DNA of 64,000 nucleotides. Source: Methanosarcinales archaeon (lineage in GTDB: Archaea; Halobacteriota; Methanosarcinia; Methanosarcinales; Methanoperedenaceae). Below are positions 37,360 to 47,098 of this stretch, one piece after another (the stretch's first letter is position 1; the number at the start of each line of letters is the position of its first letter). The stretch is taken from contig CAJPFJ010000010.1 of NCBI GenBank assembly GCA_905339155.1, positions 1 to 64,000 of the forward strand, given 5' to 3'. The notes beneath the pieces were generated by a model. That model saw only the letters and a program-made list of their open reading frames with translations. It was not told the origin of the DNA and ran no database searches. The position numbers and the translations under genes were made by a program.

Positions 37360-37700
37360 GGGGAGAGCGCGTTAGAGGAGGTCACATATCCGGAACAGGA
37401 ATACAAAGAGGCTGGGGGAGTCTCGACCTCTACGGGCAAGCAGCGGAGAATTCTCGATTACTTCTGCAAACGGGTACGCAACCCTGTCATACGCTCTGCT
37501 TCCCTATGCATTCGTGCAGGACTACACTGAGGCAGGCTATAACCAGAATGTGATGACCAGAGCACCGAGGTTTGCACGACGAAGGGTAGCCTGAACCTGA
37601 ATAGTCAGTGGAGAACTTGCGCCTTGTAGATTTCCATCACGATGACCTTGGTTAGTGAAGAGTCGGCTTAGATTTATATTGAACATTATGAGTCTTTTTG
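37360..37700. other. GC-rich region without a supported gene
   Basis: Open frames of 90-110 codons cross here in several phases but overlap each other and look unlike proteins. It may be part of the same RNA element as 37242-37357 or decayed DNA. AT-rich promoter-like sequence resumes at about 37670. Confidence 0.35.
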
Positions 37701-40427: not shown

Positions 40428-40755
40428 TTATTCACACCCTTTATTCATATATTATAGTCGAATTGCATTCATAATAAGGTTTTCTTGTGGATCATATATG
40501 CTTGTAAGCTTTTTAATAGAACCACGTCCATAATATAGGATAACTTCCTGTTAGGCTATACAAAACTATGTCCAGTCCAATCACCATCCAATTTTGCGGT
40601 GCGGTATGTGAAGTTACATGAATGTTCCCATTTCATGGTTAGGTGGTCGAAAAATTGAAGTTAGGTTTTTATAACGGTGTAACCTAAATTTGGGTGTGGA
40701 AATCCTTGTTTTTGATAATCATTTGAATCAACCCCTATTTATAATTAAAACAACC
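40428..40755. other. Intergenic with 5' fragment copy of the beta-CASP gene
   Basis: At 40568-40621 a short open frame (MSSPITIQFCGAVCEVT) closely repeats the start of the beta-CASP RNase gene at 42952 (MSSPINIQFCGATGEVT), including the ATG. It ends in a stop after 17 codons. The rest of the gap has no gene. Confidence 0.75.
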
Positions 40756-41412
40756 TCATTGAATTTCTGCTTTGAATTTTTCGAATCCGATCTCATCGAT
40801 GAATTCCCCGAGTCTCTTTTTCTTGGAATGTCTTTTATAGTATTCTATTATCCTGTCTACGGTATCAAGCGCTTCTTCATCTGATAGGTTTTCATTAAGT
40901 GTTACACCTAATCTAGGTTTTAATCCCGCACTGCCGCCTACTGTGATATTCCAACCTTTGGAAGTGCCTACAATTCCTATATCCTTGATAATGTGTTCAG
41001 AACAAGAATTAAGACATCCTGAGACTCCAATTTTTAATTTTGATGGTAATTCCTTGCCATAATTTTTTTCATCCAGTTTCAAGCCTATTCCAACAGAATC
41101 CTGCTGGCCTTTCTTGCAAAAAGTAGTACCAGGGCATATCTTGACACTGCGCACACAGAGTCCCGCTGCATGAGCAGGTTTCATTTGCAGGTCATCCCAC
41201 AAATTGTCCAGGTCTTCCGGTTTTATTCCTACAATTGCTATCCTCTGGGCAGAAGTTAATTTCAATGCCTGAGCATTATACTTTTCTGCAATATCCACAA
41301 TTTTTCTAAGGCCTGCCACATCTATTATTCCACCAGATATGTGTGGAGCAACAGCGAATGTTTTTCCATCTCGTTGAGAAATAGCTCCTTTTCCTAACAT
41401 GTCTTTTGCCAT
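40756..41412 (-). CDS. Small siroheme [4Fe-4S] nitrite/sulfite reductase-like protein
   Basis: A 218-residue single-module member of the nitrite/sulfite reductase family (Dsr-like protein). The cluster/siroheme ligands appear as CPGTTFCKKG (Cx5C) and SGCLNSCSEH (Cx3C), and the N-terminal ferredoxin-like half contains KLTSAQRIAIVGI. About half the length of assimilatory enzymes, as in the small group common in methanogens, whose activity toward sulfite is known for some members. It is downstream of the NrdD-like and rubrerythrin genes on the same strand. Confidence 0.88.
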   Translation of the reverse strand: MAKDMLGKGAISQRDGKTFAVAPHISGGIIDVAGLRKIVDIAEKYNAQALKLTSAQRIAIVGIKPEDLDNLWDDLQMKPAHAAGLCVRSVKICPGTTFCKKGQQDSVGIGLKLDEKNYGKELPSKLKIGVSGCLNSCSEHIIKDIGIVGTSKGWNITVGGSAGLKPRLGVTLNENLSDEEALDTVDRIIEYYKRHSKKKRLGEFIDEIGFEKFKAEIQ

Positions 41413-41424
41413 AAATTCCTCCTC

Positions 41425-41664
41425 CTATCGACTCGGCGTACCATACCGTTTCCTATCTTTTAGTTCTTGTTGTTTGCCTGCATTCCAGCCTTTAACATCC
41501 CCGATGTATCCGGTTACTCTGGATAATTGGGTGACATTATGCCGATTACATACCGGACACATTGGCTTCCCACATTCATGGCATGTTGCAGTTCCTGATA
41601 TGGTCTCTTTACACGGTTTGTTTGCATTTGCTTTTAATGCGATTGTACATTCTTTGTTTTCCAT
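41425..41664 (-). CDS. Stand-alone NrdD-like C-terminal glycyl-radical/zinc domain
   Basis: A 79-residue protein matching only the tail of anaerobic ribonucleotide reductase NrdD. Zinc-site cysteines (CHECGKPMCPVCNRHNV) are followed by QLSRVTGYIGDVKGWNAGKQ and ELKDRKRYG. The RVTGYIG segment contains the Gly that becomes a radical in NrdD. The large catalytic domain is absent. It could act as a radical spare part, comparable to YfiD for pyruvate formate-lyase, or as a metal protein. It lies between rubrerythrin-like and siroheme reductase genes. Confidence 0.75.
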   Translation of the reverse strand: MENKECTIALKANANKPCKETISGTATCHECGKPMCPVCNRHNVTQLSRVTGYIGDVKGWNAGKQQELKDRKRYGTPSR

Positions 41665-41685
41665 GATTTCAATCTCCGCTTTTTT

Positions 41686-42102
41686 TCAAAAATACCTTTC
41701 AAGAATGCCTTTTAGAGCTTTTGCATGTCGAGCTTCATCCCGCGCCGAGACATCGAAAAAGTCATGTGCTTCATCAATTCCTGCTTCTTTTGATTTTAAT
41801 GCTGACTCACGCTTGAATTTATTCGCACCCTCTTCACCTTTTAGCATCCTCTGAAGGTTTTCTTTTGTACTGATGGAAATTTTACCTGCAAGTTCGGCAT
41901 AGCCTGCTGCATGCCAGGCTTCTTCAAAAGCTATTTTTTCCAGAACTACTCCAATCTCAGGGTAACCTTCACGCTGTGCCTGCTTTGCCATTGCAAGATA
42001 TAGCCCGACCTCACCGGTCTCACCTTTGAAGCTATTCTCAGCTGCTTCTTCCATTACGGTTCCTTTGACAATTCCGATTTTGTTCTCGCTTATCAATTCC
42101 AT
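41686..42102 (-). CDS. Rubrerythrin-like ferritin-fold protein
   Basis: A diiron protein of about 138 residues without a C-terminal rubredoxin domain. Iron-ligand helices are visible as GETGEVGLYLAMAKQA, FEEAWHAAGYAEL, FKRESALKSKEAGI and ARDEARHAKALKGIL (two ExxH pairs). The Met at 42102 (MELISENKIG) is the likely start; the longer frame from 42144 is less likely. It should detoxify peroxide. First gene of a leftward operon with the NrdD-like and siroheme reductase genes, divergent from the ArsR-V4R regulator. Confidence 0.85.
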   Translation of the reverse strand: MELISENKIGIVKGTVMEEAAENSFKGETGEVGLYLAMAKQAQREGYPEIGVVLEKIAFEEAWHAAGYAELAGKISISTKENLQRMLKGEEGANKFKRESALKSKEAGIDEAHDFFDVSARDEARHAKALKGILERYF

Positions 42103-42198
42103 AAAAACTCCTTTGTTAGATATCAAACTAACAGTAAGGTTCAAGTATAACTAATACCATATAAAACTTACTGAAAATTACGATACTAAGAGTATGAT

Positions 42199-42948
42199 AT
42201 GGCTTACATTCTAAAACCTGACGAAAAAACGGCAAAATTATTTTCAGACAAAACAAGACTGAAGATATTGGAGTTACTCTCCGAAAAAGAATTGACAAAT
42301 TCCCAGCTTGCCGGGATGTTGAATTTGAGTAAACCCACTATTTCTCATCACCTGAAATTACTTCTGGATGGTGGCATTGTGAAAATATCAAGGATTGAAC
42401 ATGAGGAACATGGCATTGCGATGAAATTCTATGCAGTCAATCCCAATATTCTTTCAGTTGAAGCGCTTAAAGATAATAAATTGACTGAGCAGATTTCAAA
42501 AGAAATCCAGGAAGCTATGGATGCAAGATCGGGTCTCTCTGGTGGCCATGCTAACAGTGCATTCTTACGTATGTTGAAATCCACAATTCTCAATACAGGA
42601 ATAGATATGGATAAACCATTTTATGATGCTGGCTACAAAATAGGGGTTAATGTAATATCTAAACAGGTAAAAGCCAATACACTAAAAGATGTTTTAAAAG
42701 AATTAGCCGTTTTGTGGGAGAAACTTAAGCTTGGAACTGTAGAATTAGTCTCAGAAAATAAAATCAAGGTAGCAGATTGTTACCAATGTGGAAATATGCC
42801 CAATATGGGAAAAACTCTCTGTCCAAGTGATGCTGGAATAATTGCAGGCGTTCTGAACACAGTTTGCCAAAAGAGATATTCTGTAAAAGAGACAAAATGC
42901 TGGGGGACAGGGTATGACTTTTGTGAGTTTGAGATAAAGGAATTGTAG
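42199..42948 (+). CDS. ArsR-type regulator with V4R sensor domain
   Basis: A 249-residue transcription factor. An N-terminal winged helix (RLKILELLSEKELTNSQLAG then SKPTISHHLKLLLDGG) is followed by a C-terminal V4R domain with Cys residues (DCYQCGN, LCPSDAG, TKCWGTGYDFCEFEI). The V4R part probably senses a small molecule, metal or redox signal. The gene is divergent from the rubrerythrin operon with a 96-base gap and likely controls it. It ends three bases before the beta-CASP gene. Confidence 0.88.
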   Translation: MAYILKPDEKTAKLFSDKTRLKILELLSEKELTNSQLAGMLNLSKPTISHHLKLLLDGGIVKISRIEHEEHGIAMKFYAVNPNILSVEALKDNKLTEQISKEIQEAMDARSGLSGGHANSAFLRMLKSTILNTGIDMDKPFYDAGYKIGVNVISKQVKANTLKDVLKELAVLWEKLKLGTVELVSENKIKVADCYQCGNMPNMGKTLCPSDAGIIAGVLNTVCQKRYSVKETKCWGTGYDFCEFEIKEL

Positions 42949-42951
42949 CCC

Positions 42952-44874
42952 ATGTCCAGTCCAATCAATATCCAATTTTGTGGTGCTACAGGTGAAGTCA
43001 CAGGTTCAATGCATCTACTGACAATTGATAATAAGAAAATACTTCTTGATGCGGGAGCTTTTCAGGGAACTGAGGCAAAAGATAAGAATTCAGCCCCTCT
43101 TATATTTGATCCTGCTGAAATAGATTATATCTTTTTGACCCATGCACATTATGACCATACCGGCAGATTGCCAATGTTATGCCAGAGAGGCTTCAAAGGT
43201 GAGATTATAACTACACCTATGACAAGGGAAATAACTTTTCGAATAATGGATGACTCTTTAAGAATACAAAAAGAAGAAGGGAAAGAACTATTATTCTCAG
43301 AAGATGATGTAAAGAAAGCAAAAAGCCTTTTCGTTCCATTAAATGAAGATTATCCGCAGTGGCAGGATGATGAAAAAAAGATAAAGATCAAATTCATCCC
43401 ATCAGAACATATCCTGGGAAGCTCTTCAATATTCATAGAGGAGCCAGTTTCCCTCTTATATTCAGGTGATGTTGGGGGCGGCTCATCCAGCCTTCACTCC
43501 ATTCCAAAACCGCCTGATACATGTGATTATCTTATTATCGAAAGTACATATGGAAATCGAAATCTTGAAAAAAGCAATAGTGAAATATTATCGCAATTGA
43601 AAGCCGCTGTTGAATCAATCGGGAAGAATAACTCAAGACTTTTGATACCTATCTTTTCCATAGACCGGGCTGAAGAGATCCTGTTCATGCTGCGCGAGCT
43701 GAACATCAAAGAAAAAATATATCTTGATACTCCTATGGGAATTGATATACTTGATATCTATTCACATAATAAATATCTATTATCTAAGATTTCAGATGAG
43801 TTCATAAAAAAAAATTCAAAGGAACTTGATAAAATATTCCACCCCGATAATTTCGAGAGGCTAAGAGCAAAAAAAAATAGCGATGAACTTGCTGAATCAA
43901 GCGAATCATGCATAATCCTTGCAAGCTCAGGAATGTTGGAAGGAGGACGCATCAGGAAATATCTTCCCCAATTCCTTCCCGATGAAAAGAATATCTTGCT
44001 TTTTTCAGGTTTCCAGGCAGAAGGGACTCTGGGCAGGGATATCATAAATGGATATCCAGAAGTGAATGTAGATGGAATACCTGTAAAAGTAAAAGCACAG
44101 ATCAGGAAAATTGAAGGGCTTTCCGCTCATGCTGATAAGACTGCACTTTTAAATTATATCGATTGCTTCAAGACATTACCTGTAAAAATTTTCATCGTAC
44201 ATGGAGAGATGGTAGCATCCCTGGAATTATCTGATGCCATAAAAGAGAAATTCAGGATAAAAACGGTTCTTCCAAAAATAAACGAAAAATATGATCTGGC
44301 AGCAGGTGAGATAAGGGAAAGAACAATAATCAAGGGAATATCAATTGGAAATGTCAGGTTGAATTTTGAAAATATATCTGGTAAGAAGATAGCTCTTTTT
44401 GCAGGGGGAATAATAGATAATGGTAACGAATATTCCCTTGTTTCTGTTCGTGAAATAGAGGAAATGCTTCATGATTTGAAAAAAGAAATGGTAAAACCTC
44501 TCCCTGAAGAAATAATTATTTCGGAAACCCATATCAGACCTGAGACTCTATCGAGTGCAACTCCTCCATCACCTGAAGAGTTGATCCTTGGTTTAATTAA
44601 AATTTTTAAGGCAGGTTATGTTTCTAAAGGCCTTATCCGAGATCTGATGGATGCATCAGAGCGTGGGATAAGCGAATATAGGAAGGTTATCGACAAGAAG
44701 ATTAAAAACGATGCATTGATTCTGGATGAAAATGATTTACGTCGCAAAGGAATTCAAATCCCGGACAGGTCTCTTATTTCAGGACAACTGGAAGACTTAT
44801 TGAAAAGAAGCTCCTTAATGGAACAGTTAAATTTGCAGTTAGCACTCCATCGAATGTTTACCGAAATAAAATAA
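42952..44874 (+). CDS. Beta-CASP metallo-beta-lactamase RNase
   Basis: A 640-residue nuclease. The metallo-beta-lactamase motif is LTHAHYDHTGRLP. Beta-CASP motifs include ESTYGNR, IPIFSIDRAEEIL, ASSGMLEGGRI, GFQAEGTLGRD and GLSAHADK with its conserved His, and VHGE closes the core. No KH domain is present at the N-terminus, so it is of the short RNase J/aRNase-like type rather than aCPSF1. The last 170 residues form an extra helical domain. It processes or degrades RNA. Directly follows the ArsR-V4R gene. Confidence 0.93.
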   Translation: MSSPINIQFCGATGEVTGSMHLLTIDNKKILLDAGAFQGTEAKDKNSAPLIFDPAEIDYIFLTHAHYDHTGRLPMLCQRGFKGEIITTPMTREITFRIMDDSLRIQKEEGKELLFSEDDVKKAKSLFVPLNEDYPQWQDDEKKIKIKFIPSEHILGSSSIFIEEPVSLLYSGDVGGGSSSLHSIPKPPDTCDYLIIESTYGNRNLEKSNSEILSQLKAAVESIGKNNSRLLIPIFSIDRAEEILFMLRELNIKEKIYLDTPMGIDILDIYSHNKYLLSKISDEFIKKNSKELDKIFHPDNFERLRAKKNSDELAESSESCIILASSGMLEGGRIRKYLPQFLPDEKNILLFSGFQAEGTLGRDIINGYPEVNVDGIPVKVKAQIRKIEGLSAHADKTALLNYIDCFKTLPVKIFIVHGEMVASLELSDAIKEKFRIKTVLPKINEKYDLAAGEIRERTIIKGISIGNVRLNFENISGKKIALFAGGIIDNGNEYSLVSVREIEEMLHDLKKEMVKPLPEEIIISETHIRPETLSSATPPSPEELILGLIKIFKAGYVSKGLIRDLMDASERGISEYRKVIDKKIKNDALILDENDLRRKGIQIPDRSLISGQLEDLLKRSSLMEQLNLQLALHRMFTEIK

Positions 44875-44917
44875 AGGAGAAATATATTAAAACCTAATTT
44901 ATAAATATATTAATTAT

Positions 44918-44962
44918 GAATACCCTGTTCTGAGGAAGAGAGGTACGATGCTGGCTTTCTTG
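44918..44962 (+). repeat. Direct repeat flanking the RAMP genes (left copy)
   Basis: GAATACCCTGTTCTGAGG and GGTACGATGCTGGCTTTC closely match the sequence at 46813-46857, with two bases missing in the right copy. The two copies bracket the RAMP gene pair. Confidence 0.65.
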
Positions 44963-45102: not shown

Positions 45103-45750
45103 ATGTTAAATGAAGACTTATGGATATTAGAACTAAAAGCAACAGCAGTGTCACCACTCTATACAGGTGAGAATAAACTGGAGAGCCAGAAAAGAAGAAA
45201 ACAGGGAAATATGCTGCCGACCAGGATGTCAGGGGATGGATTCGCATCGATCAGCATATTCGGAGCAGTCCGTGGATATGCAGAGAAGATATATAAAGAC
45301 GCCGGGACATGCGATACCGGAAAAGACACAAAAGGCTGCGGGAGATGTCTAACATGCGATATGTTCGGAAATCTGGGACGAAAAGGAAGAGTATCCTTTG
45401 AAGATTTAAAATCTGTACGACCCTTCGATAAAGTAGTTGAAAGAACAGTACATCCGCACATTGATAGGGAAACAGGTGCGATATCTGCTGGAAAAGGCGC
45501 GTCAATCGAGCTTGAAGAGATCGTAGAAGGAACCGAACTGACAGGCAAGATCGTTATCAAGAACCCTACTGAAAAGGATATTGAAGTCATAAACGCTGCT
45601 CTTGCGGCAGCTGAAGATAATGGAATAGGCGGATGGACACGGCGCGGGAAAGGGCGAGTTAAGTTTGAAGTAACGCCAAAAAAGGTCAAATGGGCAAACT
45701 ACAAAGAGTTAGGGGCGGCGGAAGCTAAGAAACTGGTGAACATGAAATGA
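45103..45750 (+). CDS. RAMP-superfamily CRISPR protein (Csm3/Csx7-like)
   Basis: A 215-residue protein of the RAMP/Cas7 group that forms backbone subunits of type III CRISPR complexes. Signatures are SISIFGAVRGYAEKI (first RRM-like unit), a cysteine knuckle (CDTGKDTKGCGRCLTCDMFG), VERTVHPHIDRETGAISAGK, and the Gly-rich loop GGWTRRGKGRV near the C-terminus. A strong AAAGGAGA site precedes the ATG. The second RAMP gene overlaps by four bases. No cas10, cas1 or cas2 is near. Confidence 0.85.
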   Translation: MLNEDLWILELKATAVSPLYTGENKLESQKRRKQGNMLPTRMSGDGFASISIFGAVRGYAEKIYKDAGTCDTGKDTKGCGRCLTCDMFGNLGRKGRVSFEDLKSVRPFDKVVERTVHPHIDRETGAISAGKGASIELEEIVEGTELTGKIVIKNPTEKDIEVINAALAAAEDNGIGGWTRRGKGRVKFEVTPKKVKWANYKELGAAEAKKLVNMK

Positions 45751-46793
45751 AGCCGCTGGCTTTTAAAATCCAGGGAGAACTTGAAAACCAATCAGAGTTG
45801 CATATAGCCACAAATAATACATATAATGAAAGGGGATCACAGATAAAAGCAAGCGATATCTACCCTTTAGGACAGAATCTCAGGGGAGCATTCGGATATC
45901 TTTTTCTTGAAATGAAAAGCAAGATCGCAGACACTCTTGAGAATGGACATCCTGTTATCTATTTCAGGGACGCGCTGATAAAACATCATGACGGCATTTT
46001 TATTCCTGTAGTTAAATTGGATAAAGGCATAAGACAGGTGGTTTACGAATGTTGTGAATGCCTGCATATCGATAAATACCCTGCTTTGAGACAGCCGATG
46101 GCTGGAATATCGCTTGGCATTGAAGGAACTGTCAGGAATATGTACACGACTGATGTAATCTCAAGCAAAAACAGGTTCAGGTTCGAAGCGATTTTCAACA
46201 TGAAGGCAAAAAGCGCCCAAGAGGAAAAGCTCAATGAAGAATACCTGGCAGAATTTATCTCAGCCTTGAAATATGTTGAGGACAATGGTTTATATATCGG
46301 CAAGCGGAACTCAAAGGGATTGGGTAAGGTCATCCTCAAGAAATTGACAATAGTGCCTATTACGATGGAAGATATCAAAAAGAGAGCAAAAATCATTTCC
46401 CAGATAGTGAGAGATGAAGACGGGAAAATGTGGATTCATCTTTTCTCTGATACTCTCAGCAGCTTCCCGCTGTCAGGTGAGGATATTGTAAGAGATACGA
46501 AGAATGCAGCAAAGTTCTTTGATCCTGATTTCACGCAGTATAAAGATCCGAAAATAACGCATATAGAAAAACCAGTCGAACTTCTTGTCAATTTGAGTTT
46601 TCTTGACCTGAAAGTAAAAACAGGAAAACCCAGATTTGAAGCGCCAAAGAGTGTTATTTCAAGAGGTACAAGATTTAGATATCAGGTAACTGATGCTGTT
46701 CCAGAGTTTTTTAATGCGATTGCAATGGCAGAGCTGCTAAGAGGTTTGGGGGATCGTACAAGTTTTGGAAAGGGGGAGTTTGTAGTAAGTTAA
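45747..46793 (+). CDS. Second RAMP-superfamily protein (two Gly-rich loops)
   Basis: A 348-residue RAMP-like protein. The N-terminal half has GQNLRGAFGYLF, a His/Cys cluster (ECCECLHIDKYPA) and a Gly-rich loop YIGKRNSKGLGKV. The C-terminal half ends with LLRGLGDRTSFGKGEF, a second Gly-rich loop, suggesting two RRM-like modules as in Cas6 or double-RAMP proteins. Subtype cannot be set from motifs: Cas6-, Csm5- or Csx10-like are possible. Coupled (ATGA) to the first RAMP gene and followed by a mini CRISPR-like array. Confidence 0.75.
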   Translation: MKPLAFKIQGELENQSELHIATNNTYNERGSQIKASDIYPLGQNLRGAFGYLFLEMKSKIADTLENGHPVIYFRDALIKHHDGIFIPVVKLDKGIRQVVYECCECLHIDKYPALRQPMAGISLGIEGTVRNMYTTDVISSKNRFRFEAIFNMKAKSAQEEKLNEEYLAEFISALKYVEDNGLYIGKRNSKGLGKVILKKLTIVPITMEDIKKRAKIISQIVRDEDGKMWIHLFSDTLSSFPLSGEDIVRDTKNAAKFFDPDFTQYKDPKITHIEKPVELLVNLSFLDLKVKTGKPRFEAPKSVISRGTRFRYQVTDAVPEFFNAIAMAELLRGLGDRTSFGKGEFVVS

Positions 46794-46812
46794 ACGATTG
46801 ATGTTCATCAAT

Positions 46813-46857
46813 GAATGCCTTGTTTTGAGGATGAGGTACGATGCTGGCTTTTCTGAT
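46813..46857 (+). repeat. Direct repeat flanking the RAMP genes (right copy)
   Basis: Matches 44918-44962 with scattered substitutions and two fewer bases. It lies 20 bases after the stop of the second RAMP gene. Confidence 0.65.
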
Positions 46858-46991
46858 TCTGAAGTATAGTAAATTTGTGCAAGTCTTTTTAAATGATGTA
46901 TCGGTTTTGAGAGTATGCACTTTGATATTTCCTATTTCAAGGCAATATGTGACTCGAAATGAGAAACTAAGTCTGATTCTTGGACCGTTTT

Positions 46992-47098
46992 AGGACACGT
47001 TCCTGATGATATGAGGGTGCAACTTCCTGTCGCATACTGCCATATTGAAAAGCTTATATTTGTATCAGGACACGTTCCTGATGATATGAGGATGTAAC
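46992..47098. CRISPR. Mini CRISPR-like array: two 32-bp repeats, one 43-bp spacer
   Basis: The repeat AGGACACGTTCCTGATGATA continues TGAGGGTGCAAC (46992-47023). It recurs at 47067-47098 with two changes, both in the last eight bases. The 43-base sequence between them is unrelated. The ...AAC end and size fit archaeal CRISPR repeats, and RAMP-type genes lie just upstream. Only two repeats exist, so a simple direct repeat of another kind is not excluded. The strand is not determined. Confidence 0.6.

What the first reader, a model, noticed from the sequence alone, without database searches (positions are those of the whole stretch)
45103..47098. Two-gene RAMP module without Cas10, Cas1 or Cas2 next to a mini CRISPR array
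A Csm3/Csx7-like protein and a second protein with two Gly-rich loops are translationally coupled and followed by two 32-bp repeats with a single spacer. No other cas gene lies within the window. A minimal crRNA-binding complex of a Cas7-like backbone plus a Cas6/Csm5-like double-RAMP protein could bind RNA guides without a Cas10 signalling subunit. It may be a reduced or repurposed type III relative.
Basis: partly seen in the sequence, partly recalled or inferred. Interest (0 to 1): 0.78.

Follow-up and report, generated by a model that had tools for sequence, protein, structure and literature searches.

The report
Type VII CRISPR aimed at host mRNA
What looked like a stripped-down two-gene CRISPR remnant is a complete type VII (RNA-cutting) CRISPR system in a methane-oxidising archaeon; its nuclease gene sits right behind a redox-regulator gene and its only guide is complementary to the message of one of the cell's own stress-detoxification enzymes, so it may be a natural RNA-silencing switch rather than (or besides) immunity.

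Summary
The two RAMP genes and the mini-array are real, but the claim that no other cas gene is near is wrong: the gene just upstream (42952-44874) is cas14, the beta-CASP nuclease that defines type VII CRISPR-Cas. All three proteins match the solved type VII complex. The array is two 37-nt repeats around one 38-nt spacer, with no other copy in the genome. Three other Methanoperedens genomes carry the locus or part of it. New here: the only spacer is antisense to a chromosomal flavodiiron-protein gene in five sister genomes (2-3 mismatches of 38) and, more loosely, in its own genome (5 of 38). Of six Methanoperedens guides with a clear target, two hit transposases and four hit other cellular genes, three of these at the translation start; all are antisense. 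In this genome and in strain BLZ2 cas14 starts 3 nt after a MsvR-like redox-regulator gene; a studied relative of that regulator controls a flavodiiron oxidase. Type VII membership is near certain. Co-option as an RNA-guided switch on host mRNA is plausible but unproven; a decayed immune memory is the main rival.

The parts
42199..42948 (+). MsvR-like redox regulator gene (ArsR-type HTH + V4R), stop 3 nt before the cas14 ATG
   Evidence: NCBIfam NF053755 MsvR E=6.8e-43, 147 bits (curated cut-off 220 not reached); PF02830 V4R and PF01022 HTH_5; Cys 208/234/242 spacing and junction, also in BLZ2
42952..44874 (+). cas14 (beta-CASP nuclease, 640 aa)
   Evidence: NF045584 E=6e-129, 431 bits (cut-off 800 not reached); best PDB hit Cas14 2.4e-69; Beta-Casp and RMMBL; metal-site motifs THAHYDH, H153, D173, SAHAD, VHGE invariant in 5 sequences
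44916..44958 (+). orphan leader-like element; in E14 the same element stands before the cas14-cas7 array, which is absent here
45103..45750 (+). cas7 of type VII (215 aa)
   Evidence: PDB type VII Cas7 E=9.1e-36, next best 2.8e-4; PF03787
45747..46793 (+). cas5 of type VII (348 aa), ATGA overlap with cas7
   Evidence: PDB type VII Cas5 E=9e-6, 1e-15 as an 8-sequence profile; four of the five best Foldseek hits are type VII Cas5 chains
46811..46851 (+). leader-like element of the mini-array (second copy of the 44916 element); TATA-like stretch near 46885-46895 by eye
46987..47023 (+). CRISPR repeat 1 (37 nt)
47024..47061 (+). single spacer W1 (38 nt), antisense to a flavodiiron protein (fprA) mRNA
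47062..47098 (+). CRISPR repeat 2 (37 nt)
40503..40618 (+). remnant of a cas14 upstream region and first codons, 2.3 kb upstream of the intact gene
   Evidence: BLAST to E14 L010 5526-5572 and 5594-5656; 4 of 48 differences to E14, 8 of 48 to the intact window gene

Best explanation
A type VII CRISPR-Cas locus of a Candidatus Methanoperedens species. crRNA from the mini-array is held by a Cas5-Cas7 filament; when it pairs with an RNA, Cas14 is recruited by its C-terminal domain and its beta-CASP site cuts that RNA. This mechanism was shown in the literature for homologues and is inferred here. The one guide of this genome is antisense to the mRNA of a chromosomal flavodiiron protein, and cas14 lies directly behind a MsvR-like regulator gene. 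Shown here: gene identity, synteny, purifying selection, guide-target complementarity and strand. Inferred: expression, crRNA processing (a Cas6b is encoded on another contig), co-transcription of msvR-like and cas14, cleavage, physiological role. On the role I give: decayed or foreign-directed immune memory about 0.45, maintained regulation of host mRNA about 0.3, not decidable between the two or other about 0.25.
For: Cas14: NF045584 431 bits against 287 for aCPSF1, matched residues 6-591; PDB Cas14 2.4e-69. Cas7: type VII 9.1e-36. Cas5. The trio stands together in L082, L083 and L085 from other families at 31-43% identity. dN/dS window against E14: cas14 0.142, cas7 0.085, cas5 0.095. Repeats vary between copies and the locus holds no cas1, both as described for type VII. 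Guide targets are antisense in 11 of 11 guides that have a confirmed target with an ORF over it, taking the longest ORF at the site; shorter sense-strand ORFs overlap some sites. W1: 5 of 34 family genomes at 2-3 mismatches outside the array, reversed control 0.
Against: The NCBIfam curated cut-off for Cas14 was not reached. The Cas14 model is poor (pLDDT 57), so its C-terminal fold is untested. Cas5 here is 348 aa, the solved one 240 aa, and TM-scores to it are modest (0.39-0.47 by query). The own genome's target has 5 mismatches of 38. No transcript or activity data.
Confidence: 0.9

Rival explanations
1. Ordinary type VII immunity in decay: the locus lost its other arrays, and the last spacer is an old memory of an fprA gene carried by another strain or a mobile element; the match to the own gene is incidental.
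For: W1 differs from every fprA found at positions 29-30, and read in frame its source encodes KYKLFNMAVCDR instead of KYKFFNMAVCDR, like a natural allele of another strain; A1 and A2 look alike in this. Arrays A and B of E14 are missing here. Type VII is reported to target mainly transposon genes, and B2, B3 and 4 of 5 confirmed G236 targets are transposases by Pfam.
Against: No exact core match in viral contigs and no match covering 80% of W1 in plasmids or phages. cas genes are under purifying selection. Array 0 differences of 112 nt between window and BLZ2 against 6 of 281 in its two flanks: right direction, not significant. Four of six Methanoperedens guides with a target hit non-transposase cellular genes.
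Confidence: 0.45
2. Co-opted regulator: msvR-like and cas14 are expressed together and the complex lowers fprA mRNA in response to redox state.
For: 3-nt gap between the msvR-like stop and the cas14 ATG, same in BLZ2; the only guide is antisense to a flavodiiron gene; M. thermautotrophicus MsvR represses fpaA, an F420H2 oxidase gene (passages of PMC3729527); predicted duplex -43.6 kcal/mol with the own mRNA, -51.5 with BLZ2's, -62.6 for a perfect match; guides of E14 and G048 hit start regions of GT2 genes of their own genomes, at adjacent sites by different spacers.
Against: 5 mismatches in the own target; the known MsvR box TTCGN7-9CGAA is absent from the whole window; the same paper found that M. 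acetivorans MsvR does not bind upstream of FpaA homologues; the targeted protein is nearer to Moorella FprA (486 bits) than to the methanogen F420H2 oxidase (300 bits); in E14 and G048 cas14 is not next to this regulator. The link was noticed after the event.
Confidence: 0.3
3. A housekeeping aCPSF/RNase J-like gene that happens to lie beside a two-gene RAMP remnant.
For: It also matches TTHA0252 (1.1e-61) and aCPSF proteins.
Against: Cas14 model 144 bits above aCPSF1 and matched into the C-terminal region; the trio is kept in other families.
Confidence: 0.02
4. Remnant of a type III system that lost Cas10.
For: PADLOC and NCBIfam call Cas7 Csm3/Csx7-like.
Against: Type VII Cas7 leads by 30 orders of magnitude; no second PF03787 gene in the genome; Cas14 present.
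Confidence: 0.01

Closest known systems
Type VII CRISPR-Cas (PMC10910872, section 9 and passages; PMC12669027, passages; Yang et al. 2024 seen only through PMC11786720)
   Same: cas14-cas7-cas5 operon, varying repeats, no adaptation genes in the locus, antisense guides, transposase targets in relatives
   Different: one guide only, antisense to a host flavodiiron gene; cas14 directly behind a MsvR-like gene; three arrays in E14; no mention of host-gene guides in the parts I read
Type III-D / III-E CRISPR-Cas
   Same: Cas7 and Cas5 kinship
   Different: no PF03787 gene besides this Cas7 in the genome; nuclease is beta-CASP
crRNA-like regulators of host genes (CreA/CreT, abstract PMC9458426; type I-B of Haloarcula, abstract PMC10989794; Francisella Cas9 scaRNA, recalled)
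   Same: one or two repeats, guide against a host gene, partial complementarity
   Different: those use DNA-binding or Cas9 effectors; here an RNA-cutting class 1 effector, and no regulation has been shown
MsvR-fpaA redox circuit of Methanothermobacter (passages of PMC3729527)
   Same: a MsvR-type regulator and a flavodiiron protein brought together
   Different: there MsvR acts at the fpaA promoter; here the box is absent and the link is through cas14 adjacency and the guide

Membership tests
Type VII CRISPR-Cas | Cas14: beta-CASP nuclease with a C-terminal domain akin to Cas10 | tested here: met
   by sequence over residues 6-591; NCBIfam cut-off not reached; the C-terminal fold itself untested (model pLDDT 57)
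Type VII CRISPR-Cas | cas14 in an operon-like row with cas7 and cas5 | tested here: met
   same in E14, L082, L083, L085
Type VII CRISPR-Cas | Cas7 has lost the type III catalytic residue | not tested
   profile matches do not reach the N-terminal loop
Type VII CRISPR-Cas | no adaptation module in the locus; repeats with substitutions | tested here: met
   Cas1 only on contig C72; repeat pair 89% identical, 14 repeats of three genomes vary
Type VII CRISPR-Cas | guides antisense to transcripts, mainly of transposons | tested here: inconclusive
   antisense 11 of 11 guides; transposases 2 of 6 in Methanoperedens (none for the window's own guide), 4 of 5 in G236 by Pfam
Type VII CRISPR-Cas | crRNA-guided RNA cutting by Cas14 | not testable with these tools
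   metal-site motifs kept
Type III CRISPR-Cas | Cas10 | tested here: inconclusive
   no further PF03787 gene in the genome and none in the ORFs around the locus; Cas10 models not searched
MsvR regulators (gene before cas14) | ArsR-type HTH plus V4R with three conserved cysteines | tested here: met
   Cys 208/234/242, spacing 26 and 8 as in M. acetivorans 206/232/240; NCBIfam cut-off not reached
MsvR regulators (gene before cas14) | TTCGN7-9CGAA box before the gene | tested here: not met
   0 in the window, 2.4 expected by chance

The most novel reading that the evidence does not exclude
A prokaryotic RNAi circuit: a redox-regulator gene (MsvR-like) and a type VII CRISPR effector form one transcription unit with a dedicated single-guide array, and the effector cuts or blocks the cell's own flavodiiron mRNA. 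More widely, type VII of these archaea silences genome-resident transposons and chosen host mRNAs at their start regions, piRNA- or RNAi-like, because aiming at RNA lets a cell target itself without cutting its chromosome.
Probability: 0.3. Interest if true: 0.87.

Novelty: new variant of a known kind. Interest (0 to 1): 0.63.

Why it matters
Type VII is rare and its natural role is known from few spacer matches. This locus offers one concrete host target in a genus kept in enrichment cultures, points to self-directed mRNA silencing by a CRISPR effector, and may tie it to redox control in anaerobic methane oxidisers.

Tried and rejected
Rejected: Cas6/Csm5 identity of the second gene (type VII Cas5 leads). 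Autoregulation of the cas operon by the spacer: no match over 12 nt to the window or the loci held at that point, outside the array itself. A viral or plasmid source of W1: exact cores not in viral contigs, no match covering 80% in plasmids or phages; the repeat core is not in viral contigs, nor is a close Cas7. The direct repeats around cas7-cas5 looked at first like mobile-element flanks; in E14 each stands before an array, so I read them as leaders. Repeat hairpins: of 6 repeats folded, the best z-score was -1.59 and one was positive, so no claim. The Cas14 model is too poor for fold claims. No beta-CASP tree was built.

Guides examined. Methanoperedens: 10 (W1, A1-A4, B1, B2, C1, the 30-nt stretch B3 after the last repeat of array B, and the G048 spacer); 6 with a clear target (W1, A1, A2, B2, B3, G048). 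A3, A4, B1 and C1 had no clear hit in 34 genomes (A4 and B1 weak hits only, B1 not followed, A4 best 8 mismatches of 34). G236: 11 stretches between repeats; 5 confirmed (S2, S3, S7, S8, S9), S6 and S10 are composites with a lost repeat, S4 has a 42-nt BLAST match that my ungapped check of L116 did not confirm; L116, L120, L123, L124 and L125 of the 13 fetched loci gave no match at up to 7 mismatches. Three matched sites had no ORF over them and were not counted for strand (L073, L090, L121). The repeat consensus used for L082 was chosen by eye.

Papers: PMC10910872 section 9 and passages, PMC12669027 and PMC3729527 passages, PMC11786720 part 1 of 2 of the text; the rest search listings. No supplements. 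Print: the library, searched for Methanoperedens, CRISPR and 'type VII' together, ranks papers with more of the terms first and its top paper held two of three, so none held all three; PMC10910872 and PMC12669027 main texts hold the genus name 0 times. Supplementary tables and papers outside the library may name it. Searches were the other searches on type VII and on self-targeting.

Full report
Observation. The two ORFs, their ATGA overlap and the repeat pair are real. The repeat is 37 nt; its core occurs nowhere else in the 3.34-Mb, 79-contig assembly at up to 3 mismatches. The stated lack of other cas genes is wrong.

Identity. The protein at 42952-44874 is Cas14: NCBIfam NF045584 at 431 bits against 287 for aCPSF1, below that model's curated cut-off of 800; best PDB hit Cas14 of the type VII complex at 2.4e-69, ahead of TTHA0252 at 1.1e-61; Pfam Beta-Casp and RMMBL. 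Cas7 hits type VII Cas7 at 9.1e-36, next best 2.8e-4. Cas5 hits type VII Cas5 at 9e-6 alone and 1e-15 as a profile of eight relatives; four of the five best Foldseek matches of its model (pLDDT 74) are type VII Cas5 chains, the other is type III-D, with modest TM-scores. The own genome has one PF03787 gene and one Cas1 gene, on contig C72 with Cas2, Cas4, a Cas6b and a HepT. PF10040 (Cas6) does not ring there, but Pfam's Cas6b models do, so crRNA processing in trans is possible.

Distribution. In a phylum sample it rings in 8 of 392 genomes, own included. Full trios stand in L082, L083 and L085; L081 and L084 gave Cas7 with Cas5, L087 Cas5 and L086 Cas7 in my ORF comparison. A fourth Methanoperedens genome, G048, has an array and the first 274 codons of cas14 on a contig that ends there. 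Window against E14: dN/dS 0.142, 0.085 and 0.095 for cas14, cas7 and cas5.

Arrays. E14 has three: five repeats upstream of cas14 in the opposite sense, three between cas14 and cas7 and two after cas5. The window keeps only the last, with another spacer, plus a leader-like element where the second array stood. The 14 repeats of the window, E14 and G048 share an invariant ATGATAT. L082 of another family has 12 repeats, also between cas14 and cas7, most with a closely similar core.

Targets. W1 matches fprA, a flavodiiron gene (ODP and flavodoxin domains; nearest solved relative Moorella FprA), in 5 of 34 family genomes with 2-3 mismatches outside the array, BLZ2 included, reversed control 0, and in the own genome with 5. 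The crRNA would pair with the mRNA, in BLZ2 from codon 283. The own fprA lies beside an FtsZ-like gene, BLZ2's beside a hisG-like gene (by eye), so it looks chromosomal. E14 spacer A1 matches a GT2 glycosyltransferase gene from about 14 nt into the gene, 2 mismatches of 37 in E14 itself; A2 matches about the same region of a membrane-protein gene without a Pfam domain, 4 of 34. The G048 spacer covers the start codon of two GT2 genes of G048, 1 and 2 mismatches of 34. E14 B2 and B3 match DDE_Tnp_1 and IS110 transposase genes, in E14 itself with 3 of 38 and 4 of 30 mismatches. So 2 of 6 Methanoperedens guides with a target hit transposases and 4 hit other genes. In G236, 5 of 11 stretches match ORFs of G236 with 1-3 mismatches; 4 of these ORFs have Pfam transposase domains, the fifth (S2) has none. 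All 11 guides are antisense to the longest ORF at the site. Each of the 11 also matches the genome that carries its array, W1 with 5 (own) and 3 (BLZ2) mismatches.

Context. In the window and in BLZ2 the cas14 ATG stands 3 nt behind the stop of a MsvR-like gene that is divergent from a rubrerythrin gene, with a sulfite/nitrite-reductase-like gene beyond. Its cysteines 208/234/242 have the spacing of the conserved ones of M. acetivorans MsvR, and it has CX2CX3P. M. thermautotrophicus MsvR represses fpaA and itself; M. acetivorans MsvR was not seen to bind upstream of FpaA homologues. In E14 and G048 cas14 has its own upstream region instead; a remnant of that region and of the cas14 start lies at 40503-40618, nearer to E14 than to the intact gene (4 against 8 differences of 48). 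The present order thus arose by rearrangement.

Reading. Type VII membership rests on several tests by sequence and one by fold. The regulatory reading rests on three facts put together after the event: one guide left, a host flavodiiron target, a redox-regulator gene before cas14. Against it stand the mismatches, which look like allelic variation of another strain, the missing MsvR box and the transposase targets of relatives. The array shows 0 differences of 112 nt between window and BLZ2, its flanks 6 of 281, which is not significant.

Noticed in passing
window 37441-37598; L010 10347-11940: A 158-nt stretch of the window is 90.5% identical to the 3' end of a terminase-like ORF that lies just after the E14 array, next to a tyrosine-integrase gene; both type VII loci lie near pieces of the same (pro)virus-like element. 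The terminase name is by eye (no Pfam hit).
   Followed up: partly
window 42116-42131: Palindrome TTAG-N8-CTAA in the 96-nt gap between rubrerythrin and the MsvR-like gene; one of two such in the window. It resembles the published box TTCGN7-9CGAA and might be this regulator's site.
   Followed up: partly
L021 (G000:C72, 3848 bp): Own genome's only Cas1 hit: a small contig with cas4, cas2, cas1, cas6b and a HepT toxin gene, no array seen on it.
   Followed up: partly
L091 (G058:C7:2717-2826): 77% DNA match to the 3' part of cas5 in a further Methanoperedens genome; possibly a fifth, divergent or broken type VII locus.
   Followed up: no
L061, L063, L064, L065: The GT2 gene hit by two different spacers at adjacent sites (E14 A1, G048) is a small paralogous family with nearly identical first codons in three genomes.
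   Followed up: partly
window 40503-42951: About 2.3 kb with a reductase-like, a rubrerythrin and the MsvR-like gene lie between a remnant cas14 start and the intact cas14, as if inserted with regeneration of the gene start.
   Followed up: partly
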